64,000 nt of DNA, from the NCBI GenBank assembly GCA_963580285.1, contig OY757011.1, forward strand, positions 165,755,406 to 165,819,405. Direction: 5' to 3'. The notes below the pieces were generated by a model that saw nothing but the letters and a program-made list of their open reading frames with translations, ran no database searches and was not told the DNA's origin. The translations under genes were made by a program, and so were the position numbers. Source of the DNA: Lucinisca nassula. Taxonomy: Eukaryota; Mollusca; Bivalvia; Lucinida; Lucinidae. Position 1 is the stretch's first letter. The number at the start of each line of letters is the position of its first letter. Shown here piece by piece: positions 1,450 to 52,711 of this stretch.

Positions 1450-2790
1450 GATGTAATTCATGCTTCACGGCGGGGTTCGCTTAAACGTTGCCCTTGTCCT
1501 GATGTTATTCATGCTTCATGACGGGGTTCACTTAAACTTTGCTCTTGACCAGATGTTTTCATGGTTCACGACGGGGCTCACTTAAACCTTGCTCTTGACC
1601 TGATGTTATTCATGCGTCACGACGGGGTTCACTTAAACTTTGCTCTAGACCTGATGTTATTCATGGAATACGACGGGGTTCACTTAAACTTTGCCCTTGA
1701 CCTGATGTTATTCATGCTTCATGACGGGGTTCACTTAAACTTTGCTCTTGACCTGAAGTTATTCATGGTTCACGACGGCGTTCACTTAAACTTTGCTCTT
1801 GACCTGATGTTATTCATGGTTTACGACGGGGTTCACTTAAACTTTGCCCTTGACCTGATGTTATTCATGCTTCATGACGGGGTTCACTTAAACTTTGCCC
1901 TTGACCTGATGTTATTCATGCTTCATGACGGCGTTCACTTAAACTTTGCTCTTGACCTGATGTTATTCATGGTTTACGACGGGGTTCACTTAAACTTTGC
2001 CCTTGACCTGATGTTATTCATGTTTCATGACGGGGTTCACTTAAACTTTGCTCTTGACCTGATGTTATTCATGCTTCACGACGGGGTTCACTTAAACTTT
2101 GCTCTTGACCTGATGTTATTCATGGTTTACGACGGGGTTCACTTAAACTTTGCCCTTGACCTGATGTTATTCATGCTTCATGACGGGGTTAACTTAAATT
2201 TTGCTCTTGACCTGATGATACTCATAGTTTACGAACGCGGTCAATTAAACTTTGCCCTTGACCTGATGTTATTCATGGTTTACGACGGGGTTCAATTAAA
2301 CTTTACCCTTGGCCTGATGATAGTCATGCTTAACGACGGGTTCACTTAAACTTTGCTCGTGACCTGATGTTTTTCACGCTTCACGAGGGCTTCACTTAAA
2401 CTTTGCTCGTGACCTGATGGTAGTCATGCTTCACGACGGGTTTCACTTAAACTTTGCTCGTGATCTGATGTTTTTCACGCTTCACGACGGGTTTCACTTA
2501 AACATTGCTCGTGACCTGATGTTTTTCACGCTTCAAAAGGGGGTTCGCTTAAATTTTGCTCGTGACCTGATGGTATTCATGCTTCATGGCGTAGTTCACC
2601 TTAACTTTGCTCTTGGCCTCGTGACCTGATGTTATTCATGCTTCACGACGGGGTTCACTTAAACTTTGCTCTTGACCTGATGTTAATCATGCTTCACGAC
2701 GGGGTTCACTTAAACTTTGCTTGTGATCCGATGTTATCCATTCCACTTAAACTTTGCTCGTGGTCCGACATTATTTATACTCCAGTTAAC
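1450..2790 (+). repeat. 51-bp minisatellite, about 25 units
   Basis: Units of about 51 bp contain TTCACTTAAACTTTGC, then a CTTGACCTGATG block, then TTATTCATG. Because 51 is a multiple of three and one frame lacks stops, a frame of 262 residues (1561-2349) stays open, built of a 17-residue repeat (DGVHLNFALDLMLFM plus two variable residues). Two shorter frames continue it. The variable pair alternates in a partial three-unit pattern (VY, LH or FH, LH), suggesting a 153-bp higher-order period around 1820-2170. The 3' units diverge (TTGCTCGTGACC). I see no promoter, signal peptide or flanking exon, so I call it a minisatellite, with coding possible but unsupported. Confidence 0.85.
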
Positions 2791-3298: not shown

Positions 3299-4816
3299 TA
3301 TACTCAGCTTCAATGAAAACGCACCACTTTTAGAATTTTGATTTCTTTGGTTTAAGGTAAAAATGACTGACTTTTTCAACTGATAAATACGTTATTGAAA
3401 AGTTGTCACCGAAGCAAGTTTGTTTGACACGAATACTGCGTGATTTTCATGATGTGCATGTGCACGTGCAAAATGCAAAAAATGCAAAATTTTCGTAATC
3501 ACGATATTTTTGGCACTTTCTTTACTGTCATTATAAGATCCGGATTCTTTACGTTAAAAGGCTAGCAAAACATTTCATAAGAACAAGCCAATGGGACGTC
3601 TAAGTAACGTCGATCGTCATCGTGCCCTCGGTATGGTTGAATGTGGGCTTTCATACCGCCAAGGTGCAGAGCGTATAGGTTGTTCGCACACTAAGATTGC
3701 TCGATTGGTTGAAAGGCACAACGCTACGGGGTCTGTGGACGATAGACAACGCCCTGGACGTGAACGTGTTACTACACGTCAGCAGGACCGGTACATTGTT
3801 TTGAATTATTTACGCAACCGATGTAGGGCGTCCGTGGAAAATGCCCAGGAGACACTTGGAACCCATAACCTACGCGTAAAAGCCTTAACTGTACAGCGGC
3901 GTCTCTAGGAACGCGGTATTTCTAGCCTTAAGTCGTATAGTGTGTGTGTGTGGGGGCGGGGGGGGGGGGGGGTACGTTTTGACGGCGGAACATCGAATCA
4001 ATCGATTTAATTGGTGTCGATAGCGTATCCGATGGACACAACAGCGTTGGCTTGATATACTGTTCACGGACGAGTCCCTGTTTTGTGCTGAAATGTTTGA
4101 TAGGCGGCGCAAAGTATGGCGTCGTCGTGGGGAGCGATTTCAAGACTGTTGTGTTAAACAGATGTTACGTCGGGGTGGTAGTAGCGTACTGGTGTGGGAA
4201 GGGATCTTATGGTGCCACAAACGTTGATGGCAATTTGACGGCACGTCGGTATATCGATGAAATCTTAGAGCCTGAGGTGGTAGCGTTTTTACGCAATAAT
4301 GGTGACATTACGCTTTTCCCACAGGACAATGCACGTGCTAATTCTGTGAGGCTAGGCATGGACTTTTTCAATCAAAATGGTGTGCAAGTTCTTCCTTGGC
4401 CTGCGTTTTCGACGAATTTAAACCCAATTGAGCAGCTTTGGGACCAGCTCGGAAAACGTGTGTACAGCCAACGTCATCCGCCAATCAACCGTCAGCAGCT
4501 TGCCATGGCGCTGCAGGAAGACTGGGACAACATCACACAAGACTAGTTACAGCGTTTAATTCGAAGCACGATGCCAAACACTTGATGTTAATGGTGGACA
4601 TACCCGGTATTAGGATATGTGAATTTGGTTATTCGGGTGTGTGGACTTATTCGAGTCTCTGTACCTCTGCATACAATGAAATGCTGTAACTCTGTAGTGA
4701 GTCTATGGATATGTTAGTGATAATTCATTAAACGTGATCAAATGCTGGACATATTGTGATTCAATTAAAATTTGAGGTATAGTACTAGTGGTGCGTTTTC
4801 ATTGAATCTTAGTATA
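3299..4816 (+). mobile_element. Tc1-like DNA transposon with both TIRs
   Basis: A ~1.5-kb element bounded by ~30-bp inverted repeats. The left end reads TATACTCAGCTTCAATGAAA and continues AACGCACCACT; the right end is its complement at 4787-4816 with two mismatches. TA lies at both outer edges, as expected for the TA target of Tc1/mariner elements. The transposase (3591-4546) is in the middle. The length matches ordinary Tc1 elements. Intact ends with a broken transposase mean the copy could be moved only by a transposase supplied in trans. Confidence 0.85.
3591..4546 (+). pseudogene. Tc1-like transposase, frameshifted
   Basis: The first ~105 residues (3591-3908) are a paired-type helix-turn-helix region (YRQGAERIGCSHTKIARLV) followed by the basic linker typical of Tc1 proteins (RQRPGRERVTTRQQDRYI). 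The catalytic part lies in two other frames: FTDESLF with WRRRGERF near 4063-4140 (first Asp), and FPQDNARAN with STNLNPIEQLWDQLGKR near 4318-4455 (second Asp and Glu, 34 residues apart, DD34E). At least two frameshifts break it: one in a GT/poly-G expansion at about 3941-3972, which replaces normal coding sequence, and one near 4205-4220. A TAG also ends the first part at 3906. The family normally cuts and pastes at TA; this copy cannot make a full protein. Confidence 0.85.
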
Positions 4817-13057: not shown

Positions 13058-14131
13058 TGCACGACCCGCAGAAAAAGCGACCGACTGAAGTCGGTTGATT
13101 TTCTAAGAGTGCCCTAAAATCACCGTGTCATTCTGTCAGTCTGTCTGTCCGTCCGTAACCCGTTTGTGAAAATTGGTGATAGTGACTTAACCGCTTGGAA
13201 TATTTAAACAATTTTTGGCATACTGATAGATATCAATGAGATCTAACCAATGAACTTGCGAAATATTACATTCCATTTAGTATAGCCTCGCCGAGGCGAA
13301 AAATGTGAAAATTTTCGAACTGCTTCTCCTCGGAAACCGTTGGGCCAATTGACGTCAAATTTCATATGGAGGCTCTATGGGATGGGGGAAACCAAAATTT
13401 GCTCATGGGGTTCAGGTCACATGACCAAAATGGCCACCAGGCCATATACGGTCTGTCTGTCTGTCCGTCCGTAACCCGTTTGTGAAAATTGGTGATAGTG
13501 ACTTAACCGCTTGGAATATTTAAACAATTTTTGGTATACTGATAGATATCAATGAGATCTAACCAATGAACTTGCGAAATATGACATTCCATTTAGTATA
13601 GCCTCGCCGAGGCGAAAAATGTGAAAATTCTCGAACTGCTTCTCCTCGGAAACCGTTGGGCCGATTAAGGTCAAATTTCATATGGAGCCTCTATGGGATG
13701 GGGGAAACCAAAATTTGCTCATGGGGTCCAGGTCACATGACCAAAATGGCCGCCAAGCCATATATAGTAAAAACCCTTCAAAATAGTCTTCTCCAGAACC
13801 ACTGGGCAGATTTCCACGAAACTTGATAAATAGCATCTGGGACGTAGGCCCATCATAAATTGCTAAAATGGTGACCCTGGGTTGACCTTGACCTTCTTTG
13901 TGCCTAGGTCAAACTTTGACACATATGCTTTTGTATTGGAAAAGTGAGAATTCATTTTTTCCTGCAAACGATTCAGAAAACAGTACAAAAGTATAAGATA
14001 TATTTTTGCTCCTTACGATAAGGCGCATTTATTGGGGGAACCGTTTTAGGTCCAGGTCACATGACCAAAATGGCCACCATACCCATATATGGTAACACTC
14101 ATAAAGCTAAAAGCATCCGGCGGGTCGTGCA
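13058..14131. mobile_element. TIR element (TGCACGACCCGC) with internal duplication
   Basis: Bounded by the 12-bp inverted pair TGCACGACCCGC (13058-13069) and GCGGGTCGTGCA (14120-14131). Inside, a ~312-bp unit starting GTCTGTCTGTCCGTCCGTAA is present twice in direct orientation (about 13138-13449 and 13450-13763), each with GCCTCGCCGAGGCG. A diverged part follows with TTGACCTTGACC. No transposase frame is present, so it is non-autonomous, and its class is not clear. Confidence 0.7.
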
Positions 14132-14202
14132 CTTCAGCTGAAGCACTGGTTTCTAAACAACCTTCCAATTAAATCTACGCCGCATATCTTTTTTAAAGAT
14201 AT

Positions 14203-14546
14203 TGTAACATATCAGCCCCCATCAGTATTGTTCAGGAAGTATAAAGCCTGAATGACTGTATCACTATAGTACGCTACAAGTAGAGTTAACTTGACTCTGA
14301 GTGTGGAATCAGTCGAATGTGTTGCACACTCAGGCTGGTTTCTCTCATTTCATTCGTACGACAAAGGGATTCAATGTTGACAAATTGCACCGTCTGTCAT
14401 TTCTGTTGTTTACGATCCGTACAAGTAATTGTGACCATTAAGGCATCTATCGGCTGAACAGACAATTGAGGCAATACATAAACAATGTCTCTGGACAATA
14501 ATTACCTTTTAAAAAGAGTGTTATAAGTTAAAATCCAAGTTTTTCT
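14203..14546 (+). repeat. 5' LTR remnant (U3 part)
   Basis: 344 bp that match 23938-24281 in the 3' LTR with no difference that I can see. The match stops at TTTTTCT, where the inverted segment begins through about 4 nt of shared sequence (TTCT). Confidence 0.9.
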
Positions 14547-14862
14547 CCAGTTCTCAGAGTCCGTAATCATCGATTAATGCCAGAAATAAAGTTAAGGGAT
14601 GAAATCCGGGGTATGTCCCGAAATTCGGGTAAACCGGTCAAAATCTGGGAAAGCTTCCAAAATCTGGGAAAGCTTCCAAAATCTGAGAAAGCTTTATAAA
14701 AACTGGGAAAATCATCAAAGACAGAGACTTATCACACTGGTATGTTCCCTAGGAACCCTCTCCAGGTCTATTCTCCACTCTGAAATCCGGGAAATAAGTT
14801 TTGCCCGATTTTCTATACCTCTCTCATGGTGCTTTTCCCAATTTTCTCGACCTTGCCACTTG
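14547..14862 (-). repeat. inverted 316-bp LTR segment in the 5' LTR
   Basis: Reverse complement of 24500-24815, with both copies exactly 316 bp. It contains three near-identical AAATCTGGGAAAGCTTCC units. In the 3' LTR this segment follows the TATA region; here it joins U3 directly to gag. Missing between the joined parts are the counterparts of 24282-24499 and 24816-25240, the primer-binding site, and the beginning of gag. Confidence 0.9.
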
Positions 14863-15768
14863 TATGATGGTCAGTCCGACATTGACGAGTATCTTACTCA
14901 ATTCAATATAGTAGCAGAAATAAATCAGTGGAGTAGCGAGACCAAAGCTCTACATTTGGCAAGCAGTTTGACGGGTAGTGCACGGTCTTTACTAAGCGAA
15001 GTAGACTCGGAACACAGGCGCAACTTTTCAAGCTTGGTGTCCGCCTTACAGTGCAGGTTCGGAACTGTAAATAGAGCTGAAGTGTACCGAGCACAACTTA
15101 AAAATAGAGTGAGGCAAAGGGGGGAAACCATTCCCGAATTGGCTCAAAACGTTAAAAAACTAACCAGACAGTCTTATCCGGGCGCAAGCTCAGATTTGAT
15201 AGACACTTTGGCACTAGATCATTTTATTGATTCTTTGCTAGATTCAGAAATGAGACTGAGATTGCGAGAATGCAGTCCGAAAAGCATTCAGGAAGCCGAA
15301 ACTTTAGCAGTGAAAATGGAAGCGCAACGAATAGCTGATAGACAGCGTAGTAAGAACGTTGGGTCACTAAGCGAGACCTCTGAGACTGATAAATGTTCGA
15401 GCGAAATGAGGAAAATGGCTGAAACTGTGCATGGACTTGTTGAGAGTGTTGAAAAATTGCAGAAGGGACAAAGGTCAGCGGAATATTTGCCGAGACCTAA
15501 AAACGGGAACAATAACAATTTTTTCGGACAAAACAGGTCACATAGACCTAACCCAGATTTTAATTCCAGAAATCGGTTCAGGGGTAATAACTGGCAAAGA
15601 AACAGACCACAAGGGGGTCAAAACAATAGCAGATTTGCGAGACCCTACGAGCAGCGAAATGGTGATAGCCGACCGACCGAGCACCCTGATAACGCATTTC
15701 AACCTCGCCGACAGGGAAACGAAAACGGGTCAAGTCTGAGGACCGCAGCTCGACCTTTAACAATGTAA
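14599..15768 (+). CDS. gag: Gag, with an N-terminus taken from inverted LTR
   Basis: A 389-residue frame. Residues 1-88 are translated from the inverted LTR segment and are not Gag-like. Retrotransposon Gag sequence begins abruptly at residue 89 with YDGQSDIDEYLTQF and IVAEINQW, the usual start of the gypsy Gag capsid region, so the original start codon has been lost. The middle is helical and the C-terminal ~90 residues are rich in Arg, Asn and Gly (RNRFRGNNWQRNRPQGG). I see no CCHC zinc knuckle, so nucleic-acid binding probably relies on this basic tail. Gag forms the particle that packages element RNA. The frame overlaps pol by about 50 nt in the -1 frame. Confidence 0.8.
   Translation: MKSGVCPEIRVNRSKSGKASKIWESFQNLRKLYKNWENHQRQRLITLVCSLGTLSRSILHSEIREISFARFSIPLSWCFSQFSRPCHLYDGQSDIDEYLTQFNIVAEINQWSSETKALHLASSLTGSARSLLSEVDSEHRRNFSSLVSALQCRFGTVNRAEVYRAQLKNRVRQRGETIPELAQNVKKLTRQSYPGASSDLIDTLALDHFIDSLLDSEMRLRLRECSPKSIQEAETLAVKMEAQRIADRQRSKNVGSLSETSETDKCSSEMRKMAETVHGLVESVEKLQKGQRSAEYLPRPKNGNNNNFFGQNRSHRPNPDFNSRNRFRGNNWQRNRPQGGQNNSRFARPYEQRNGDSRPTEHPDNAFQPRRQGNENGSSLRTAARPLTM
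15714..15720 (+). promoter_or_regulatory. -1 ribosomal frameshift site GGGAAAC
   Basis: The heptamer G GGA AAC is in the correct phase (GGA AAC are Gag codons), the canonical X XXY YYZ slippery sequence. The -1 frame is open from here without a stop through all of pol, and the Gag stop follows at 15766-15768. Partly complementary stretches downstream (GGTC..GACC) could form the stimulatory structure, but I did not fold it. Confidence 0.8.
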
Positions 15769-18700
15769 GGTCCAAAATTGTTCAGCTTAATAACACCGGA
15801 AATGACGATGATGGTTATTTTGTTCGTGCTACCGTAAATGGAAAAACAGTGACGTTGTTATGCGATTCAGGTGCGAATGTGACAATTCTAAATAGCTCAT
15901 TACTAAATACATGGGGAGAGAGAATGGAACCTTGCCTAACTCCTGTAAATACACAATTACTTACGGTAACCGGGGAAACTAAACCATTTCATGGAAAAGC
16001 AGTTGTTCAAATTAGACTGGGGAAATGTACTTTTCAGCATGAGGTTCTGTTTGCAGACATAACCCATGATGGGATCCTTGGCATTGATTTCATGATCACG
16101 AATAAATGTGATTTAATGATAAGCAGAAGCTGCCTGAAAGTAAAGGGAGTGGAAATTCCTTGCTTTATGAGCAATGGTGTCCAACCGCAATGTTGTAGAG
16201 TAGCTTTAGTAGAAAATGTGAGTGTACCCCCTGAGTCTGAGGTGATCGTTTCTGGAAAACCGCTGGATAATCTGGACAGGAGTAGATTAGGCATAGTAGA
16301 ACCGTCTAATAACTTTGTGCAGAAAACTGGTGTAATGGTAGCGAAGGTTTTGGTAGACCCCAAACTTGGAAACATTCCCCTACGACTGGCTAATTTTAGC
16401 AATGAACCAATTATGGTAAATAAAGACACGGTAACGGCAGTTCTGCTGCCTGTAGAGTCGGTAGACAGTGATAATGGTAATTTCTCCCGACAGTCCCAAG
16501 TTAATGAAAGCAGTGATACCCCCACTGATTTGCCTGAACATCTGGCACCATTATTTGATAGATCATCCATTAACTTAGACATGTCACAGAAATCTAGATT
16601 ACAGCAATTCCTGATTAAACATCAGGATATTTTCTCTAAAAACTCCAGTGACATAGGGCATACTACGTTAATTGAACATCATATAGATGTACAAAATGCC
16701 AAACCCGTGAAAAAGATCCCTTATAGAATACCCCTTGCAAAACGAAAAATCGCTGAGCAAGAGATTCAGAAAATGGTAGAAGATGGTATCATAGAGAAGT
16801 GTCCCCAGAGTGCTTGGAATGCTCCTGTTGTTATGGTCACTAAACCTGATAATTCTATTAGATTTTGTTGTGACTTTCGTGGTCTTAATGAGGTGACTGT
16901 TAAGGACTGTCAAGCCCTTCCTAGAATTGATGACAGTCTTGACGCTTTGTCAGGATCAAAATGGTGGTCCTGCCTCGATATGAAAAATGGTTATTGGCAG
17001 GTCGACATTGCTGAAGAAAATAGACATCTAACTGCATTCTCTATACCTGGGGGTGAGCAATGGCAATGGCGGAAGCTAGCTTTTGGCCTCTGCAACTCTC
17101 CTTCTACCTTTACTAGGCTTATGCAGATGGTATTTTCTGGCCTTCTTTGGAAAGTAGTCGTTTTGTACTTGGATGATATCATCTGCCATTCAAAGACATT
17201 CGATGAGCAATTTACTAACTTAGAAATGGTCTTTGAGAGGCTGAGAAAAGCTAATCTAAAACTAAACCCCAAGAAATGCCACTTATTTCAGAAAGAGGTA
17301 ACTTTTCTCGGACATACAATCAATGAAAATGGTGTAGGAACTTCTCCTGATAAGATCCGAGCTGTTAAAAACTGGCCCACCCCAAAAACTGCTAAGGAAG
17401 CAAAAAGTTTTATATCTTTGGCAAGTTACTATCGGTCATATGTTTACCAATTTGCTACAATTGCAAAGCCTATTCATCAGCTTGCTGAAAAGAATAAAAA
17501 CTTTGAATGGACCGAGGAATGTGAAAAGTCTTTTCAGATGATAAAGGATACCTTATGCAGGGCCCCTATCCTCGCTTTCCCCACTGAAACTGATCCCTTT
17601 GTTTTAGACTGTGATGCTTCTAATGTAGGACAGGGGGCCGTGTTGTCCCAGATTCAGAATGGTGAGGAGAAGGTTATCTGTTATTTTAGCAGATGTTTTT
17701 CGAGAGCTGAAAGAAACTACTGTGTCACTCGCAGGGAACTGCTGGCCGTAGTAAATTCTATAAAACACTTCCACCATTATCTTTATGGAAATAGATTCAC
17801 AGTTAGATCTGACCATGGTAGTCTTCGTTGGTTGTTGAATTTTAAAATCTTGGATGGACAGTTAGCTAGAATGTTGACGTTCTTATCTGCATATGATTTT
17901 TCTATTCAGCATAGAGCAGGGAGACTACACAGCAACTGTGACGCTTTGTCAAGGAGGCCCTGTGTAGAAGTAAACTGTAAATATTGTGAACGGGTAGAGA
18001 GCAAGTTCTCAGGAGAACAGGTGGAAAATGATCAAGAAATGGTCTCTGTTAATAGGATTAGGCAGACTGGTAGTTCGTTGGTTACTTCCAGTAAAGTATT
18101 AGGATTTTACTTAGTACATATTTTGAGTTGTATTCTGGCAATAGCTGTGGCTTCGGTTCCCACTATTTGGACCAGTATAGTTAGCTACATAGAGAAAGGA
18201 GTAGAGGTAATAAAGATGTCTGGAAAGATGTCTTGTCTGATTAGTGAACAGAGGGTTCCTCCTGACCAAAGATTAAGAAGTGAGTCAGGGAGGCCTAAGA
18301 GAGACTCAATGAGTGGAAACAGAGCTAAGAAATTAGGGAAAATTAGAGAAGTTGATAGTGTATCAACAGGTAATAGAAACCAATCTTTCTGTGGTTGTGG
18401 TAAGGTTAGTATAAACGAAGGAATAGAAAACTCTGAGCCTAAACCTGGAACTTCCAGTGACGATAACCCCGACAGTCCTGGTTCCGAAACCAGTTTAGGT
18501 AATAATGGTAATAGCCACATACGTAGGAAAGATAGTACTGAAGAAGTAGATATAGACTGGGAAAACTTTGATTCTGTTAAGATGAGAGAGTTACAGTTAG
18601 CAGATCAAGTGTTGAAAAAGTTGCATGACTGGAAAGAGAGTGGAAAGAAGCCAGAGTGGAGTGAAATAGCTGACCAGGGTTTGGAAATGAAATACTATTG

Positions 18701-19910
18701 GCATATGTGGGAACTTCTGTATTTGCGAGACGGAGTGATATATCGGAGGTGGGAAAACTTTAATGGGAAAGAGATAAAGTACCTTTTGGTTGTCCCTAGA
18801 TCTCTACGAAGATTCATTCTTTGTCATTTGCATGATAGTACTGCTGGTGCCCATCTTGGTATTTCAAAAACTTTGTACAAGGTAACAGATAGATTCTTTT
18901 GGTATGGTTTAAAGGGAGATGTAGAGGATTGGTGTAGAGAATGTGAGATCTGTGGATCAAAGAGAGTAGCTCAAAGAAAAGGCAAAGCCCCAATGAAGCA
19001 GTATAACGTTGGTTTACCTTGGGAAAGAATAGCCATAGATTTTATGGGTCCTCTTCCTCGGACGACCTCTATGAATGGCAATGCCCCGAAAAGATATCTA
19101 ATGGTCATTGGTGATTATTTCACGAAATGGACTGAAGCCATACCACTGGAGAATCTTGAGGCGAAAACGGTTGCAAGAGCGCTTATAGATAATATCATCT
19201 GTAGGTTTGGCACCCCACTTTTCATTCATACTGACCAAGGTGCTTCCTTCGAAAGCCTATTATTTCAGGAAGTCTGTCAGATTCTAGGGATTAAGAAAAC
19301 TAGGACTACTAAGGCAAGACCCCAGTCCGATGGAATGATAGAAAGGGCCAATCGAACCATTATTAACATGTTGTCGGCCTTTGTTTCAGAACACCAAAGA
19401 GATTGGGATCAATATGTTCCTTTAGTGATGATGGCCTATAGATCTTCGGTTCATGAATCAATTAAAATAAGTCCAAGTATGATGGTATTTGGTAGAGAAC
19501 CCCGATTACCTATTGACTTGATATTCGGTGAGCCTGAAAGGGAAGAGGCAGAGCGGTTACATGGAAGTCAGTATGCTAGCCAGTTGAGAGATAGGCTATA
19601 TGATGTGCATGAGTTTGCAAGAAGAAGAATGCAGATTTCGAGCGATGCTATGAAAAGACAATATGACCTCAAAACCAATATGAGAGAGTTCGAAGTCAGT
19701 GACGCAGTCTGGTTGTACGACCCGGTTCGAAAAGTAGGTTTAAACCCGAAATTACAGAGACCTTGGAAAGGTCCTTTTAAAGTGATAACGAAAATATCTG
19801 ATATCCTATATCGAGTTCAAGAATCGCCGAGGCATAAGCCACGCGTCGTACATCATGACCGGCTAAGAAAATATACTGGAAGGGATCTGCCAGTCTGGTT
19901 CAGGCAGTAA
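15720..19910 (+). CDS. pol: Pol polyprotein (protease, RT, RNase H, integrase)
   Basis: Intact and most likely made as a Gag-Pol fusion by -1 frameshifting; there is no ATG at its beginning. Domains in order: aspartic protease with LLCDSGAN (~15855); reverse transcriptase with KWWSCLDMKNGYWQ and the YLDD active site (17166-17177); RNase H with DCDASNVGQGAVLS and RRELLAVV (~17610-17960); a ~200-residue spacer with a hydrophobic segment (~18088-18186); the integrase zinc region with H, H, C, C (~18828-18960); the integrase core with IDFMGP (~19036), HTDQGASF (~19228) and the catalytic Glu in MIERANR (~19340); and a C-terminal WKGPFKV GPY/F-type module. No chromodomain is seen. It ends TAA and is followed in the same frame by two TGAs, so readthrough into the next ORF is unlikely. 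Confidence 0.92.
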   Translation, partial: RKRVKSEDRSSTFNNVRSKIVQLNNTGNDDDGYFVRATVNGKTVTLLCDSGANVTILNSSLLNTWGERMEPCLTPVNTQLLTVTGETKPFHGKAVVQIRLGKCTFQHEVLFADITHDGILGIDFMITNKCDLMISRSCLKVKGVEIPCFMSNGVQPQCCRVALVENVSVPPESEVIVSGKPLDNLDRSRLGIVEPSNNFVQKTGVMVAKVLVDPKLGNIPLRLANFSNEPIMVNKDTVTAVLLPVESVDSDNGNFSRQSQVNESSDTPTDLPEHLAPLFDRSSINLDMSQKSRLQQFLIKHQDIFSKNSSDIGHTTLIEHHIDVQNAKPVKKIPYRIPLAKRKIAEQEIQKMVEDGIIEKCPQSAWNAPVVMVTKPDNSIRFCCDFRGLNEVTVKDCQALPRIDDSLDALSGSKWWSCLDMKNGYWQVDIAEENRHLTAFSIPGGEQWQWRKLAFGLCNSPSTFTRLMQMVFSGLLWKVVVLYLDDIICHSKTFDEQFTNLEMVFERLRKANLKLNPKKCHLFQKEVTFLGHTINENGVGTSPDKIRAVKNWPTPKTAKEAKSFISLASYYRSYVYQFATIAKPIHQLAEKNKNFEWTEECEKSFQMIKDTLCRAPILAFPTETDPFVLDCDASNVGQGAVLSQIQNGEEKVICYFSRCFSRAERNYCVTRRELLAVVNSIKHFHHYLYGNRFTVRSDHGSLRWLLNFKILDGQLARMLTFLSAYDFSIQHRAGRLHSNCDALSRRPCVEVNCKYCERVESKFSGEQVENDQEMVSVNRIRQTGSSLVTSSKVLGFYLVHILSCILAIAVASVPTIWTSIVSYIEKGVEVIKMSGKMSCLISEQRVPPDQRLRSESGRPKRDSMSGNRAKKLGKIREVDSVSTGNRNQSFCGCGKVSINEGIENSEPKPGTSSDDNPDSPGSETSLGNNGNSHIRRKDSTEEVDIDWENFDSVKMRELQLADQVLKKLHDWKESGKKPEWSEIADQGLEMKYYWHMWELLYLRDGVIYRRWENFNGKEIKYLLVVPRSLRRFILCHLHDSTAGAHLGISKTLYKVTDRFFWYGLKGDVEDWCRECEICGSKRVAQRKGKAPMKQYNVGLPWERIAIDFMGPLPRTTSMNGNAPKRYLMVIGDYFTKWTEAIPLENLEAKTVARALIDNIICRFGTPLFIHTDQGASFESLLFQEVCQILGIKKTRTTKARPQSDGMIERANRTIINMLSAFVSEHQRDWDQYVPLVMMAYRSSVHESIKISPSMMVFGREPRLPIDLIFGEPEREEAERLHGSQYASQLRDRLYDVHEFARRRMQISSDAMKRQYDLKTNMREFEVSDAVWLYDPVRKVGLNPKLQRPWKGPFKVITKISDILYRVQESPRHKPRVVHHDRLRKYTGRDLPVWFRQ

Positions 19911-19927
19911 CGTTGAAAGTGAGACGT

Positions 19928-19946
19928 GTCCTTCTTTCTATTCCAG
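19928..19946 (+). promoter_or_regulatory. predicted 3' splice site ahead of ORF3
   Basis: GTCCTTCTTTCTATTCCAG is a pyrimidine tract ending in CAG, placed 18 nt after the pol stop codon and just before the first zinc finger. gypsy-like elements make Env from a spliced RNA with an acceptor in this position. The donor and leader exon would lie upstream, and in this copy may have been lost with the 5' LTR. Confidence 0.55.
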
Positions 19947-21901
19947 ATAATCAACTACTACTGTGGGATCTGTGAAGATCTGCCTTTTAACACCAAGGCC
20001 AAATGCATAACCCACCTGCGGGAACAACATGCAGGATTTCAGTACAAGTGTACCGTCTGTAAAAAACTCTACAGGAGGAACGACAATCCCCATGCCTGCA
20101 ATGCCAAGCCAGGCGATTATTTACTTATTGCTACCGCTACGGGTGACAAAGGGGAAGTGGCTCAAAGGGCACTTGAAATGTTCATGGCGAATGCCAAAAA
20201 GAATCTGGTGGTTGAGAGGCGGGGTTATAAACCCAATCTTAATCAACCGTTTGGCTTCAATAGTAGGTTAGGGAGACCCTTGAACGCTCCTCCAGAAGAT
20301 CTGACCTCTGATTTCATTCAGAGGAAGCGTACAAGGCCCTCCCTACCCTATCAAGGAAAATGCAGGAGATTATCCGCCTCCTCAACCTCCACCATCTGCT
20401 CTACTTCCTCCTCCACCTCTACCTCTTCTTCTTCATCTTCATCTACAATATCGGCAATAGCTACTGCCTTAACTCTGGGCCGCTCTCCTTTTCACTCAAA
20501 TCCCGGCATGTCGCCGATATTGAGTGAAGAGGAGAGGCTAACAGAAATAGGGTTGAACTCTTTGGAGTTCAACGACTATGAAGAAATGACGGGATGCCCA
20601 GAGCCCGTATTATGCGAGGAGAGAGAGGAGAAAGAAAAACAAGAGAAAGAAGAGAATGACAGAAAGGAGAAAGAAAGGAAAGAAAGAGAGCGGAGAGAAA
20701 AAGAACTAAAGGAGAGAGAAGAAAAAGAAAGAAAGGAAAAAGAGGAGAATGATAGAAAAGAGAAAGAAAGGAAAGAGATAGAGCAAAGAGAAAAAGAGCG
20801 AAAAGAGAGAGAAGAAAAAGATAGGGAGAGAGAGCAAAAAGAGAAAGAGGAGCAAGAACGAAAAGAGAAGGAAAAGAAGGAGAAAGAAAAAAAAGAGAAA
20901 GAGGAGAAAGAACGAAAAGAGAAGGAAAAAAGGAGAAAGAGAAGAGAGAAAAAGAGGAAAAACAACAAAAGGAGAGGGAAGAGAAAGAAAAGATGGAGAA
21001 AGAGAAAAAAGAGAAGGAGAAGAAGGAAAAAGAGCAAAAAGAGAAAGAGGAGAGAGAACGGAAAGAGAAGGAAAGAAAAGAAAAAGAGAAGAGAGAAAAA
21101 GAGGAGAAAGAACGAAAAGAGAGGGAAGAGAAAGAAAAGATAGAAAGAGAGAAAAAAGAGAAAGAGGAGAGTGAAAGGAAAGAGAAGGAAAGAAAAGAAA
21201 AAGAGAAGAGAGAAAAAGAGGAGAAAGAACGAAAAGAGAGGGAAGAGAAAGAAAAGATAGAAAGAGAGAAAAAAGAGAAAGAGGAGAAAGAACGAAAAGA
21301 GAAAGAAGTGAGGGAAAAGAAGAATAAAGAAAAGAAAGAGAAAGAGGAGAGAGAACGCAAGGAAAGAGAGGAGAAGGAAAGGAAAGAAAAGGACAGAAAG
21401 GAAAAAGAAGAAAAAGAAAGAAAGGGAAAAGAAGAGAAAGAAAAGAAGGAAAAGGAGAACCGAGAGAAAGAGGAGAAAGAAAATAGGGAAAGTGAAGTGG
21501 AAGAAAAGACAACAAAACCAAAACGAAAAAATATTAAGATCCCCTCCCCCACCCATAAAAAACTTGAACAAATCCATACGGATCAAACTAGCAGAATAAC
21601 ATTAGATGTGGGTGGGACCAAATTTTATACTTGTGAGAGGACACTAACCTCAGTCCCAAGTCTCCTCTCACGAATGCTTTCAAAAAACTCCCCTATGACC
21701 CCTGTAAATAACATGTATTTTTTTGACCGTGACCCCCAGACCTTTACCCATATGTTAACTTTTATCCGCACTGGCGAAGTCCTACCCCGAAATATTGAGC
21801 AGTTATTGAATTTACGAGTGGAAGCGAAATTTTTTGAGTGCGAGAGATTACTAAACATGATAGACAGGAAGTTGAGAGGAGAAGTTGGACTGGATGAGTG
21901 A
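19947..21901 (+). CDS. ORF3: zinc-finger / charged coil / KCTD-type BTB protein, with one frameshift
   Basis: No ATG precedes the first domain, so translation would need a spliced 5' exon; the first in-frame Met is ~80 residues in. Order: zinc finger C-x2-C-x13-H-x4-H (YYCGICEDLPF..HLREQH, from 19962), a second finger-like C-x2-C-x10-H-x-C (20043-20096), a basic region, a Ser/Thr run (20388-20450), ~290 residues of Glu/Lys/Arg repeats, then a KCTD-type BTB/T1 domain (21593-21860; ITLDVGGTKFYTCERTL, FFDRDPQTFTHML, FIRTGEVLP). The frame breaks by -1 near the A6 run at 20926-20931; both sides keep the same Glu/Lys style, so this is a recent indel or base-calling error. BTB/T1 domains assemble homo-oligomers and often recruit Cullin-3. 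Possible roles in particle assembly, host interference or targeting are inference. A poly(A) run starts 11 nt after the stop codon. Confidence 0.8.
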
Positions 21902-21912
21902 CAGGGAGTGTA

Positions 21913-21962
21913 AAAAAAAAAAAAAAAAAAAAAAAACACAAAAAAAAAACACAAAAAAAAAG
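21913..21962 (+). repeat. poly(A)/A-rich tract after ORF3
   Basis: An uninterrupted run of about 24 A followed by (A)nCAC units, immediately 3' of the ORF3 stop. It could be the scar of a captured polyadenylated cDNA or simply a homopolymer expansion. No AATAAA precedes it. Confidence 0.6.
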
Positions 21963-22141
21963 AGAGTGAGTGGGTTTGACTGTAAATGAAAGGTAGTATG
22001 AATGTAAAGGGCACAAATTAGTTTACAATCATTTACATTTTCAAGGCAGTAGCTGTATCTTTTAATCATGTCCCAAGTTTACTTAACGCAACAAGAAATA
22101 ATTTGAATGTAAAACAGCATAAGTTTGAGTGTTGATGAATG

Positions 22142-22275
22142 GATGAAATTGTGACAGTGACGGTGGGGGACATGTCAGTCTCTAACCGAGCTGTTTACAA
22201 TGCATGAGTGCGAGTGTGATGGAAAAGGATGAAATTGTGACAGTGACGGTGGGGGACATGTCAGTCTCTAACCCA
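22142..22275 (+). repeat. direct repeat in the retrotransposon 3' region
   Basis: A ~48-bp block starting GATGAAATTGTGACAGTGAC and ending GTCAGTCTCTAACC occurs twice, 85 bp apart. Confidence 0.8.
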
Positions 22276-22464
22276 AGTATGGACAATGGTGAGGGTGAGA
22301 ACAATAATAATAGAGAGGATATAATACCTAATAAACCTTAAGGATACCTATATTCTGATACATCTATACATATCTAAAGCTCCATGAACCCTTCCCCCTA
22401 ACACCGTTAAAAAAAAAAAATGCTCAGAAAAATTCACAATCAAAGATTACAAAACTGACTGGTA

Positions 22465-22746
22465 TTGCATGGCTTGGGTTATCCTCCTGTTGAGAAAAAG
22501 ATGCACATCCTCCTGCTGAGAAAGAGATGCACAGGAAAATCCACAAACAAAGATTACAACTGCATAAATGGTGAAGAAGGGAAAGCAATGCTCAGGGCTA
22601 TATTTGATTGTATCTCCTCTTCTGTACAAAACACCTACAGGAGAGACGTATGTACTTCGAACACCGACGTAGAGAAAACACTACAAGTACTATACTGTAC
22701 TGAGACTGATCCATGGCTGAAGAGGTCAGCCTTTAAGGAAAACTGA
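22465..22746 (+). other. short reading frame in the retrotransposon 3' region
   Basis: A 93-residue frame (starting MHGLGYPPVEKK) between ORF3 and the LTR. It runs into the 37-bp repeats, contains an internal near-duplication (LLLRKRC), and has no recognised domain. It is probably non-coding. Confidence 0.25.
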
Positions 22747-22925
22747 TCCATGGCTGAAGATGTCAGCCTTTAAGGAAAACTGATCCATGGCTGAAGATGT
22801 CAGCCTTTAATGAAATTGGTTCAATGGCTGAAAATGTCAGCCTTTAACGAAAACTGTTCCATGGCTATAGATGTCAGCCTTTCAGGAAAACGGTTCCAAA
22901 GTTGAAGATGTCAGCTGTAAATAAA
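22709..22925 (+). repeat. 37-bp tandem repeat, ~6 units
   Basis: Units read GATCCATGGCTGAAGATGTC then AGCCTTTAAGGAAAACT and decay toward the 3' end. They lie inside the retrotransposon. Confidence 0.85.
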
Positions 22926-23377
22926 CAAGGACGATGGTGACCAAATGGTGTGCTTTTGGTCTTCTAGGTGATAATAAACAGTTGTTTCTATATACTGTCT
23001 ATATACAGGTAAACTTTAAAGTACTTTAAAGTAAATTTAAATTAACTAAGCAACTTTTACTTGCGCTGAATGCAAGAAAGTGTGAAAAATAATTACAAAA
23101 TAGGCATATATATGACTCTGAACAAGAGATAACACATGTGGACTCTTTAATAAGAGCTTTATGAAGCTATAAACAGATCAAACTAACTTAAAATAAGAAA
23201 CTATGAAACTACGTTTAGATGTTTATTCACATAAATATGAACAATGAAACATTTAAACAGAACATTAAATGATTTTTACATAACAGGGATGCCGTGATTC
23301 TGTTTGTAAACACGGAATTGATTACTATTTATGATCTTCCCGAACTATAAATTCACCATTGGTTATCCCATTTCTAG

Positions 23378-23428
23378 GAGTGTATACTTGTATTAGCAGC
23401 GGTGGTGCTGGCACAAGTATACACAGAA
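23378..23428. repeat. inverted repeat in the retrotransposon 3' region
   Basis: GTGTATACTTGT and its exact complement ACAAGTATACAC flank a ~25-nt loop containing GCAGCGGTGGTGCTGGC. It would form a stable RNA hairpin ahead of the polypurine tract. Confidence 0.6.
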
Positions 23429-23924
23429 TAAAATGATTTATTCCTATTGAAGGCATTGGTGAATTTGTGGTTCATTAACTGCAATCTAGTACTGGCTATT
23501 CAGATTCTTGTGTTGCCTGTAGGGTTGCCAAACAAAATTAATCGTGAAGGACTCTATTCTTCATGGCATGCCTGTTGAAAAAAAAAAAAAACAATGACTA
23601 CATATGTAAGGAATGCAACATTATCCAAGTGATAAATCACAGTGCAGTTTCCCCCCCAAAAAAACTACAGTTCTCAATAACTTCAAGTAATATACAGTGT
23701 TTGGGTTCCCCCATTTTGGTACAGACACCCCTCACGCTTTCTGAAAATTGGTGCTACCAACTTTTAGAAAGCTGAAGGTCCTGAATATGCTGCATTCCTT
23801 AGTGTATGGAACATGACACAAAAATGACAGAACATTAATATACGGAACATATTTTGGTTAAGTGATACAAACTGATTGGTGGCTGAATTTAGCTTTAATT
23901 TTAATTGGGGACCAATTTTTTTCT

Positions 23925-23937
23925 AGGGTGGGGGTAG
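23925..23937 (+). promoter_or_regulatory. polypurine tract
   Basis: AGGGTGGGGGTAG lies directly against the TGTAAC start of the 3' LTR, the position where plus-strand DNA synthesis of LTR elements is primed. Confidence 0.75.
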
Positions 23938-25240
23938 TGTAACATATCAGCCCCCATCAGTATTGTTCAGGAAGTATAAAGCCTGAATGACTGTATCACT
24001 ATAGTACGCTACAAGTAGAGTTAACTTGACTCTGAGTGTGGAATCAGTCGAATGTGTTGCACACTCAGGCTGGTTTCTCTCATTTCATTCGTACGACAAA
24101 GGGATTCAATGTTGACAAATTGCACCGTCTGTCATTTCTGTTGTTTACGATCCGTACAAGTAATTGTGACCATTAAGGCATCTATCGGCTGAACAGACAA
24201 TTGAGGCAATACATAAACAATGTCTCTGGACAATAATTACCTTTTAAAAAGAGTGTTATAAGTTAAAATCCAAGTTTTTCTACTGTTCACATTTCTGTAA
24301 AGTTCTCCCGCCGCCATGTTGAATTTCCTTTTAGGAACGACCGCTTCGATTGGTTCATAGCTGGCAAGCCGGCCAATCGGAGTGGTTCTCATAAGGTATT
24401 ACCTTGGATAGAATAGAATGCTCGTGCCCCCAACCTAGCAACCCAGAGAGTATAAATACCCGGTGCAACGCAGCGTTCGGCACCAGTAGCCAGACTGTTC
24501 AAGTGGCAAGGTCGAGAAAATTGGGAAAAGCACCATGAGAGAGGTATAGAAAATCGGGCAAAACTTATTTCCCGGATTTCAGAGTGGAGAATAGACCTGG
24601 AGAGGGTTCCTAGGGAACATACCAGTGTGATAAGTCTCTGTCTTTGATGATTTTCCCAGTTTTTATAAAGCTTTCTCAGATTTTGGAAGCTTTCCCAGAT
24701 TTTGGAAGCTTTCCCAGATTTTGACCGGTTTACCCGAATTTCGGGACATACCCCGGATTTCATCCCTTAACTTTATTTCTGGCATTAATCGATGATTACG
24801 GACTCTGAGAACTGGAGAATCGTCCAGCGAGTCGTGGTTAAAGCTTTTTAACTTAAGAGAATTCCTTGCACAAGGAAATTTGGGAGAACGTGTCAGAAAT
24901 TGTCCAGTTTTTATTATATCTCGTCCGAAATTCTTGTTGTATGAGTTCTATCGAGAACTAAATTAATGTTGCACATAGTTAATGTGAGTTTCTTAATTTA
25001 AATATCTTGTAAAAATCGTTGTTTAAATCCTATGCTTGTACATTAAAAATCTGTTGAGTGTAAATTAATCTTGAGTCTACCATGTCCCTTGCCCGAACCC
25101 ACAACAAATCAGGATGGATAATGGAATCCTGGTTTTTCATGTAATGTTCCGACTCCTTTGACAGCGATAGCTCGGCCAAAGCAAATCCTGACCTCCTGAC
25201 GTATCTCTAACAAAGCTGAGCAAAGGGTCGGAGGGTTACA
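23938..25240 (+). repeat. 3' LTR (complete, 1303 bp)
   Basis: Bounded by TGTAAC and GTTACA and followed by the ATAT target duplication. The first 344 bp match the 5' LTR; 24500-24815 matches the inverted 5' segment. A promoter-like TATAAATACC lies at 24451. No reading frame in it is likely to be used: the minus frame at 24389-24763 only mirrors the segment now fused to gag. Confidence 0.9.
24451..24460 (+). promoter_or_regulatory. LTR TATA box
   Basis: TATAAATACC in the 218-bp part of the LTR that is absent from the 5' LTR. It is expected to direct transcription starting ~30 nt downstream. From this 3' position it could drive flanking host DNA, which holds SINEs here. Confidence 0.6.
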
Positions 25241-25330
25241 ATATTTCTTGTTCTGTCTATTTCGAAAATGGTAAGAGAGCTCGCTTGGATGACATTTTTC
25301 CCAAGAAGGATAAATGTACCTGTTTTTACG

Positions 25331-51853: not shown

Positions 51854-52711
51854 ATGGTATCCAAAAAGGAAGCTGTTTCATTCTTTTTTCTAATGCTCTC
51901 ATATTCAACGGCCTCTAAGAGGCAACGTGCTGTTTTAAATGTTCGAAGGCAGTTAGAATACTTGGAATCTTTGATATACAGGAAAACGTTTACTCTCCGT
52001 GAACACCTTTTTCAATTACAAGAACAGATAAATGCCACTGCTTTTGCGAATGCGAATGTTGCCGACATGGATATTGAGGATTTAAAAAGTGCCATTAAAG
52101 GTGAAATCGGGAGTTGTACGGAAAATTTTAAAGCACTTGCGCATGGCTTTAGTCAAGAAAAGAAATTTGCGACTGACAGAAGAGCCCGGTTGCAGGAGGA
52201 ACTTCTATCGATTGTCGAGAATTTTAATCTGAAATTTAAAGTGCTGGAAAATAAGTTTTCAGCCATGGAAAGTGATTTCGAAGACTTCAAAAGAGAAGTG
52301 AATAGAACGATAAGTGAGCAGTTAGATAGAGGAAAGGAGATTCTTAACGCATGCCCATTAAACGGCTTCACTTGGAAAACGTCGTGCTACGTTCTAGACG
52401 TATTCAAAATGAACTGGACAAGTGCACAGGACGAATGTAAAGCTAGAGGAGGACAGCTAGCTATATTGGAAAGCGAAGAAGAAATGCGATTTGTACTTCC
52501 GAAACTTGGTCAGAATACGTGGGTAGGTGGGCACGACGCGTATGTAGAGGGTCGGTGGCGTTGGGCTGGAAAAGATGAAGAGATCCAAGTCTTACTTTGG
52601 GAACCGGGACAGCCTAATGGAACCGGAGATTGTTTAGAGGCATTTAATGGTGTATTGAATGATGAAAGATGTGCCGTCTTGAATAAATTTGTCTGTGAAT
52701 ATACTGTTTAA
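51854..52711 (+). CDS. secreted coiled-coil C-type lectin
   Basis: Encodes 285 residues, complete in one exon. Residues 1-21 (MVSKKEAVSFFFLMLSYSTAS) look like a signal peptide. Residues ~25-165 are helical, with a stretch suited to coiled-coil oligomerisation. Residues ~168-285 are a C-type lectin domain: CPLNGFTWKTSCYVL start, WTSAQDECKARGGQLAILES, WVGGHDAYVEGRWRW, and the C-terminal Cys pair in CLEAFNGVLNDERCAVLNKFVCE. The usual EPN/QPD calcium-sugar motif appears as QPN, and the WND triplet is LND, so calcium-dependent sugar binding is uncertain. Molluscs have large expanded families of such lectins, many used in immune recognition. The ATG is the first in frame and follows an AT-rich leader. 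Confidence 0.88.
   Translation: MVSKKEAVSFFFLMLSYSTASKRQRAVLNVRRQLEYLESLIYRKTFTLREHLFQLQEQINATAFANANVADMDIEDLKSAIKGEIGSCTENFKALAHGFSQEKKFATDRRARLQEELLSIVENFNLKFKVLENKFSAMESDFEDFKREVNRTISEQLDRGKEILNACPLNGFTWKTSCYVLDVFKMNWTSAQDECKARGGQLAILESEEEMRFVLPKLGQNTWVGGHDAYVEGRWRWAGKDEEIQVLLWEPGQPNGTGDCLEAFNGVLNDERCAVLNKFVCEYTV

What the first reader, a model, noticed from the sequence alone, without database searches (positions are those of the whole stretch)
19947..21901. A KCTD/BTB-domain protein carried as a third ORF by a Ty3/gypsy retrotransposon
Seen: between pol and the 3' LTR, inside TSD-flanked ends, is an ORF with two C-x2-C zinc fingers, a Ser/Thr linker, a very long Glu/Lys/Arg coil and a C-terminal domain with ITLDVGGTKFYTCERTL and FFDRDPQTF, the signature of KCTD-type BTB/T1 domains. 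Known: T1/BTB domains oligomerise and many KCTD proteins are Cullin-3 adaptors; extra ORFs in this position of gypsy elements are usually env. Inference: a captured host gene replaced or supplied the env slot and might tether the particle or redirect host ubiquitination. I know of no described element with this set.
Basis: partly seen in the sequence, partly recalled or inferred. Interest (0 to 1): 0.92.

Follow-up and report, generated by a model that had tools for sequence, protein, structure and literature searches.

The report
Zinc-finger/BTB gene in gypsy retrotransposons
In one animal genome at least six families of a retrotransposon carry, where a retrovirus would keep its envelope gene, a conserved extra gene that joins two zinc fingers to a host-type BTB domain, and one copy records that the cell can splice this gene onto the element's integrase.

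Summary
The window's element (14203-25240, 3' LTR 1303 bp, TSD ATAT) is a damaged copy: 5' LTR rearranged, ORF3 frameshifted in the coil. Its family (A) carries ORF3 in all 17 near-full-length places, each with the BTB. ORF3 is uninterrupted in 4 of 21 A and 3 of 16 B copies examined. ORF3 = two zinc fingers, Ser/charged linker, KCTD-type BTB_2 (Pfam E 6e-18). Six further BTB_2 places read in full (five kinds) all have this design behind an integrase end; relatives occur in other assemblies. ORF3 distances follow integrase distances (r 0.81 and 0.89); dN/dS in A is 0.12 (fingers) and 0.07 (BTB). So this is an old, selected gene, not a one-off capture. It lacks a membrane segment, so it is not env. 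A phase-0 splice acceptor precedes the fingers; one copy (1 of 40 scored) is a reverse-transcribed spliced RNA fusing integrase in frame to ORF3. Against: B's finger region shows no significant constraint, one or two BTB captures cannot be told apart, function is untested. Best reading: a spliced, BTB-oligomerised accessory protein acting on the element's RNA or integration complex. Cullin-3 use is open.

The parts
14199..14202 (.). target-site duplication ATAT (other copy at 25241-25244)
14203..14542 (+). 5' LTR remnant (LTR 1-340)
14543..14862 (-). inverted copy of LTR 563-882, identical to 24500-24819; stands where the rest of the 5' LTR, primer site and gag start should be
14863..15768 (+). 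gag, 5'-truncated
   Evidence: open frame; matches gag of L045 from about codon 132; weak Retrotrans_gag and SCAN matches under the cut-offs
15849..19910 (+). pol: protease, RT, RNase H, integrase
19695..19946 (+). candidate intron by analogy with L053: GTCAGT donor in integrase, CAG acceptor before ORF3 (252 nt, phase 0)
   Evidence: use in this family not observed
19947..21901 (+). ORF3 as a whole (frame changes inside the coil in this copy)
19962..20210 (+). N-terminal domain: C2H2 finger, C2HC finger and following TG-x-KG segment
   Evidence: conserved in other families and assemblies; Pfam zf-C2H2_4 only below its cut-off
20376..20500 (+). Ser/Thr-rich stretch
20617..21512 (+). Glu/Lys/Arg coil made of short tandem repeats; the frame changes here
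21590..21898 (+). KCTD-type BTB_2/T1 domain
23921..23937 (+). purine-rich stretch before the 3' LTR (polypurine-tract-like, by eye)
23938..25240 (+). 3' LTR, TGTAAC...GTTACA
25241..25244 (.). target-site duplication ATAT

Best explanation
ORF3 is a true, long-kept accessory gene of a diverse set of Ty3/gypsy-type retrotransposons. SHOWN: one design (two zinc fingers, variable Ser/charged linker, C-terminal KCTD-type BTB) in the env position; co-divergence with integrase; purifying selection in family A; no membrane segment; a phase-0 3' splice site before the fingers; one genomic copy made from spliced RNA in which integrase is fused in frame to ORF3. INFERRED: the BTB assembles ORF3 into a ring (four or five subunits, as known for T1/KCTD domains), which clusters the finger heads on the element's own nucleic acid. 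The likeliest job is handling of the unspliced genomic RNA in the nucleus (retention, export or packaging), as the spliced CERV protein does for Cer1 of C. elegans. This is a claim about how it works, not about kinship with CERV.
For: Fixed design over families. Presence in all 17 near-full-length family-A places. Other assemblies. Co-divergence with integrase. dN/dS. Acceptor and spliced copy. No membrane segment. BTB fold and ring-forming relatives. CERV analogy (spliced; zinc-finger-like loop; ring-capable domain; needed for gRNA export): PMC10309623, abstract and section 15.
Against: No function was tested, and RNA binding, oligomers and nuclear location are inferred. The only splice event seen joins ORF3 to integrase and is not a free ORF3 message. 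dN/dS of B's N-terminal region is 0.88 (0.43-2.13), not below 1. The solved-structure hits of the N-terminal profile to zinc fingers are weak (E 0.055 and worse). One acceptor in decayed copies is lost (L027) and one altered (L023). Seven relatives found by the N-terminus end in the coil with no BTB seen.
Confidence: 0.45

Rival explanations
1. Integration tether: splicing swaps the C-terminal tail of integrase for ORF3, so that part of the integrase carries fingers and BTB, which choose chromatin sites or oligomerise the integration complex, as a chromodomain does in chromoviruses.
For: Exact GT-AG junction integrase-ORF3 in L053, in frame; open frame of 2257 aa; GT at the same integrase position in 7 of 8 rows with that position read and in 6 of 6 of L097-L102; acceptor phase 0 in 9 of 9 rows.
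Against: One such copy only (9 places, the query included, match unspliced throughout). L051/L054 lack GT there. The donor lies in a coding motif (Val-Gly-Asp), so its conservation may be for the protein.
Confidence: 0.25
2. Cullin-3 adaptor: the BTB recruits CUL3, and the fingers bring a host factor or the element's own protein for ubiquitination.
Against: Many T1/KCTD domains do not bind CUL3 (recalled). Kv4.2 scores as well by sequence.
Confidence: 0.15
3. Envelope substitute: ORF3 works in cell entry or exit as env does.
For: [quoted passage not shown]
Against: No membrane segment: highest 19-residue hydropathy 0.73-1.42 in six ORF3s; zinc fingers and BTB are intracellular domains.
Confidence: 0.03
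4. One-off chimera or host gene hit by the transposon.
For: None found.
Against: Many copies in one place of the element, several families, other assemblies, selection.
Confidence: 0.01

Closest known systems
Bdelloid rotifer LTR retrotransposons with captured ORF3s (PMC5408684, passages read)
   Same: Extra ORF after pol, of several host or viral origins, not always env; ORF3s said to be expressed from spliced messages
   Different: Those ORF3s are GDSL esterase, DEDDy exonuclease, env-like or TM/coiled-coil types; the text holds no 'BTB' and no 'zinc finger'
Cer1 of C. elegans and its CERV protein (PMC10309623, abstract and section 15)
   Same: Gypsy-type element, spliced non-env accessory protein with a putative zinc-finger loop and a domain thought able to form rings
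   Different: CERV is described as unlike known proteins, with G-protein-like and M domains; no BTB named in what I read; no sequence comparison was made
Chromoviruses (recalled; named in PMC12440569 passages)
   Same: A chromatin-type module attached to the integrase end, if the L053 fusion is a normal product
   Different: There the chromodomain is part of the primary pol frame; here the module is a separate ORF joined by splicing
Plant LTR elements with additional sense ORFs (PMC7264820, passages)
   Same: Conserved sense ORF between pol and 3' LTR, splicing reported for some
   Different: Described as env-like; the text holds no 'BTB'
Crypton-KCTD1 of jawed vertebrates (PMC3212892, passages)
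   Same: Transposon-derived sequence and a KCTD-type BTB in one protein
   Different: There a Crypton domain joined a host KCTD gene; here a BTB is part of a mobile element's gene

Membership tests
Ty3/gypsy LTR retrotransposon | LTRs with TG..CA ends and a short TSD | tested here: met
   TGTAAC...GTTACA, TSD ATAT
Ty3/gypsy LTR retrotransposon | domain order protease-RT-RNase H-integrase in pol | tested here: met
Ty3/gypsy LTR retrotransposon | clade within Ty3/gypsy by an RT tree | not tested
   no named reference RTs were at hand
env-carrying errantivirus/retrovirus | third ORF with signal and transmembrane segments | tested here: not met
   six ORF3s, highest hydropathy 0.73-1.42 over 19 residues
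env-carrying errantivirus/retrovirus | third ORF from a spliced message | tested here: inconclusive
   acceptor conserved and used once, joined to integrase; no RNA data
KCTD/T1 (BTB_2) domain | Pfam BTB_2 over the curated cut-off | tested here: met
   window 65.4 bits; L050, L052, L054, L055, P0008, P0010 50.7-65.2 bits
KCTD/T1 (BTB_2) domain | T1/BTB fold | tested here: met
Cullin-3 adaptor | binding to CUL3 | not testable with these tools
   -
CERV-like RNA export factor | needed for export of unspliced genomic RNA | not testable with these tools
   -
CERV-like RNA export factor | sequence similarity to CERV | not tested
   no CERV sequence was at hand
bdelloid-type captured ORF3 | GDSL or DEDDy enzyme or env domain | tested here: not met
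   Pfam scans list only BTB and weak finger matches

The most novel reading that the evidence does not exclude
A splice-switched integrase: from one element RNA, splicing makes both a normal Gag-Pol and a Gag-Pol whose integrase tail is replaced by a zinc-finger/BTB module, so that a ring-forming host-type domain is packaged with the integrase and steers integration or host ubiquitin enzymes.
Probability: 0.2. Interest if true: 0.93.

Novelty: new variant of a known kind. Interest (0 to 1): 0.82.

Why it matters
Extra genes of animal LTR elements are mostly read as env or left alone. Here one non-env accessory gene with a host-type domain has been kept through at least six families, is seen in several assemblies, and left a genomic record of its splicing. 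It gives a concrete case for how envelope-less retrotransposons gain regulatory or targeting proteins. It also warns that part of the 'BTB/KCTD genes' counted in such genomes may be transposon genes.

Tried and rejected
Readthrough of the pol stop into ORF3: rejected, since ORF3 shares the pol frame in A but not in B and stops lie between. Programmed frameshift in the coil: not supported, since some sister copies are open through the coil. A short leader exon from the gag start: an in-phase GT seen by eye in A has no clear counterpart in B; left open. Template switch as origin of the L053 junction: the C17 copy matches on both sides (100% over 173 bp, 98.4% over 617 bp) with the intron present, so none is needed.

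Led nowhere: two viral-contig scans gave no relative; a protein search with the family-A BTB gave no hit among 19 candidates; the single-sequence fold had pLDDT 37; no tRNA gene in the window. Literature: eight searches listed no paper on a BTB/KCTD ORF in an LTR element. Only listings (10-20 rows of up to thousands) were seen, the library lacks most subscription journals, and Repbase was not searched. Papers: PMC5408684, PMC12440569, PMC6238403, PMC10294476, PMC7264820, PMC3212892 by passages; PMC8556966 by a word search without hits; PMC10309623 abstract and section 15; PMC3185573 listing only.

Limits of counts: one search scored 150 of 384 BTB_2 candidates; one search used 46 of those 150 rows typed in (a look through the other rows adds none), so 29 of 40 is a lower bound. 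One search scored 40 of 277 candidates and one search scored 40 of 4387. The 20 'host-like' BTB loci were picked as single, high-scoring places and not shown to be host genes. One search dropped three long rows (L066, L073, L074). Pieces with stops or short coverage were left out of dN/dS. In one search the integrase row of L053 ends in the fusion.

Full report

IT IS A FAMILY TRAIT. LTR DNA has 40 scored matches of 59 candidates in the genome, many in pairs about 11 kb apart. The ORF3 N-terminal DNA has 39 matches; 17 are full length at 94-100% (family A, the window included), and a further set at about 69-73% is family B. The BTB DNA has 34 matches, among them all 17 of those places, one of them split by an insertion. 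Of 21 A-type copies examined (L009-L028, some of them more diverged, and the window) 4, and of 16 B loci 3, have ORF3 open from the acceptor to the stop after the BTB: 654-659 and 692-746 aa. The rest are broken by frameshifts, stops or insertions. Between A and intact B copies identity is about 77% (pol end), 51% (N-terminus) and 62% (BTB).

IT IS SEVERAL FAMILIES. A BTB_2 search of the genome scored 150 of 384 candidates, with groups of equal frames: seven places with 905 aa, four with 835, six with 628-631. I read six such places in full (L050-L055; L051 and L054 are nearly alike, so five kinds): all six have two N-terminal fingers and a C-terminal BTB behind an integrase end, which in L050 is a short frame at the start of the stretch; in L053 the second finger lacks one Cys. 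A profile of A, B, P0001, P0004 and P0006 N-termini finds those of all six at E 2e-15 to 8e-21, and P0008 and P0011; P0009 and P0010, which start after the fingers, and 200 shuffles do not match. From the other side, of 40 copies matching the pol end of L053 at least 29 have a BTB_2 match 2.2-6.9 kb downstream on the same strand. In other assemblies seven N-terminal relatives (37-53% identity) end in the coil with no BTB seen; four BTB relatives of 636-737 aa bear BTB_2, and two of them keep fingers in whole or part.

AGE AND SELECTION. Over 15 pairs of six families, distances of integrase and ORF3 correlate (N-terminus 0.81, BTB 0.89), as expected if they travelled together; the pairs are not independent. 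In the BTB tree 29 of 32 element rows form one clade (99/98) next to L068 and L080, while the three A/B rows stand apart. Holding all 32 together is not rejected (p-AU 0.509, three long rows dropped), so one or two captures are both possible. Within A, dN/dS is 0.119 (0.069-0.206; 15 copies) for the N-terminal region, 0.071 (0-0.187; 7) for the BTB and 0.227 (0.124-0.429; 13) for the pol end. Within B it is 0.177 (0.078-0.367; 9) for the BTB, 0.399 (0.195-0.910; 9) for the pol end and 0.876 (0.427-2.125; 11) for the N-terminal region, which thus gives no evidence of constraint. Only unbroken pieces were used, which favours low values, and copies are not independent. Two A LTR pairs are 99.8-99.9% identical and one B pair 99.2%, so insertions are recent.

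SPLICING. Between the acceptor and the first finger there is no ATG in the rows (A, B, L050, L051, L052, L055, L096); L052 has an in-frame ATG just before the acceptor, and P0001-P0004 begin with Met right before the finger, so direct starts are possible in some relatives. A pyrimidine-rich stretch ending in CAG or TAG stands right before a codon (phase 0) in 9 of 9 rows, with different bases in A, B and L096. Of 12 A/B copies printed, L027 has lost the AG and L023 has AAG. The copy at C10:122.37 Mb (L053) reads CATACAAA|GGGTTCCACTACC where sisters have CATACAAA|GTAGGTGATG ... TTTGTATTCTAG|GGGTTCC with about 1.4 kb between. In a search with the 1801-bp unspliced stretch, nine places (the query among them) match throughout and only C10 shows 1-213 and 1590-1801 abutting. 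Exact loss of a GT-AG stretch is the mark of a spliced RNA that was reverse transcribed and inserted. The fusion is in frame (open frame 2257 aa). The same donor position has GT in A, B, L052, L055, L096 and in 6 of 6 of L097-L102, but not in L051/L054; Val-Gly-Asp is a coding motif, so this conservation alone is weak.

MECHANISM. In six ORF3s no stretch is hydrophobic enough for a membrane, so the env reading fails. The plan, a nucleic-acid-type head, a charged arm and a ring-forming tail, is like that described for CERV, the spliced Cer1 protein needed to export genomic RNA (PMC10309623, abstract and section 15). I commit to an oligomeric nucleic-acid-binding accessory protein acting on the genomic RNA as most likely (0.45), then integration tether (0.25) and cullin-3 adaptor (0.15). 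Oligomers, nucleic-acid binding and nuclear action are inferences from what is known of T1/KCTD and zinc-finger families.

NOVELTY. LTR elements with extra ORFs are known (PMC5408684, PMC7264820), so this is a new variant of a known kind. Eight searches of an open-licence library listed no description of a zinc-finger/BTB ORF3 or of a splice-made integrase fusion; that does not prove absence from print.

Noticed in passing
window 14543-14862 and 24500-24819: A 320-bp LTR piece stands inverted at the 5' end, 100% identical to its 3' LTR counterpart: a recent rearrangement or an assembly error.
   Followed up: partly
window 21910-21962: A-rich run right after the ORF3 stop; could be a trace of capture through a polyadenylated RNA or a simple repeat.
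   Followed up: no
window 22705-22926: Six tandem copies of a 37-bp unit in the long untranslated stretch between ORF3 and the 3' LTR.
   Followed up: no
L009, L013, L017-L019, L021: Several family-A copies lose the frame in the same part of the BTB: shared decay or a recurrent sequencing error.
   Followed up: no
window 14863-15768: Gag shows weak SCAN-domain matches (E 2e-4 to 1e-3, under Pfam's cut-off).
   Followed up: no
window 13130-13764: Tandem duplication of about 314 bp, 96% identical, just upstream of the element.
   Followed up: no
window 4052-4546: ORF with NPIEQLWDQLGKR, which looks like a Tc1/mariner transposase end (recalled motif, no search).
   Followed up: no
window 1561-2349: Open frame of about 20-residue tandem repeats (DGVHLNFALDLMLFM).
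   Followed up: no
window 51854-52711: 285-aa ORF with a hydrophobic start and a C-type-lectin-like end (by eye), likely a host gene.
   Followed up: no
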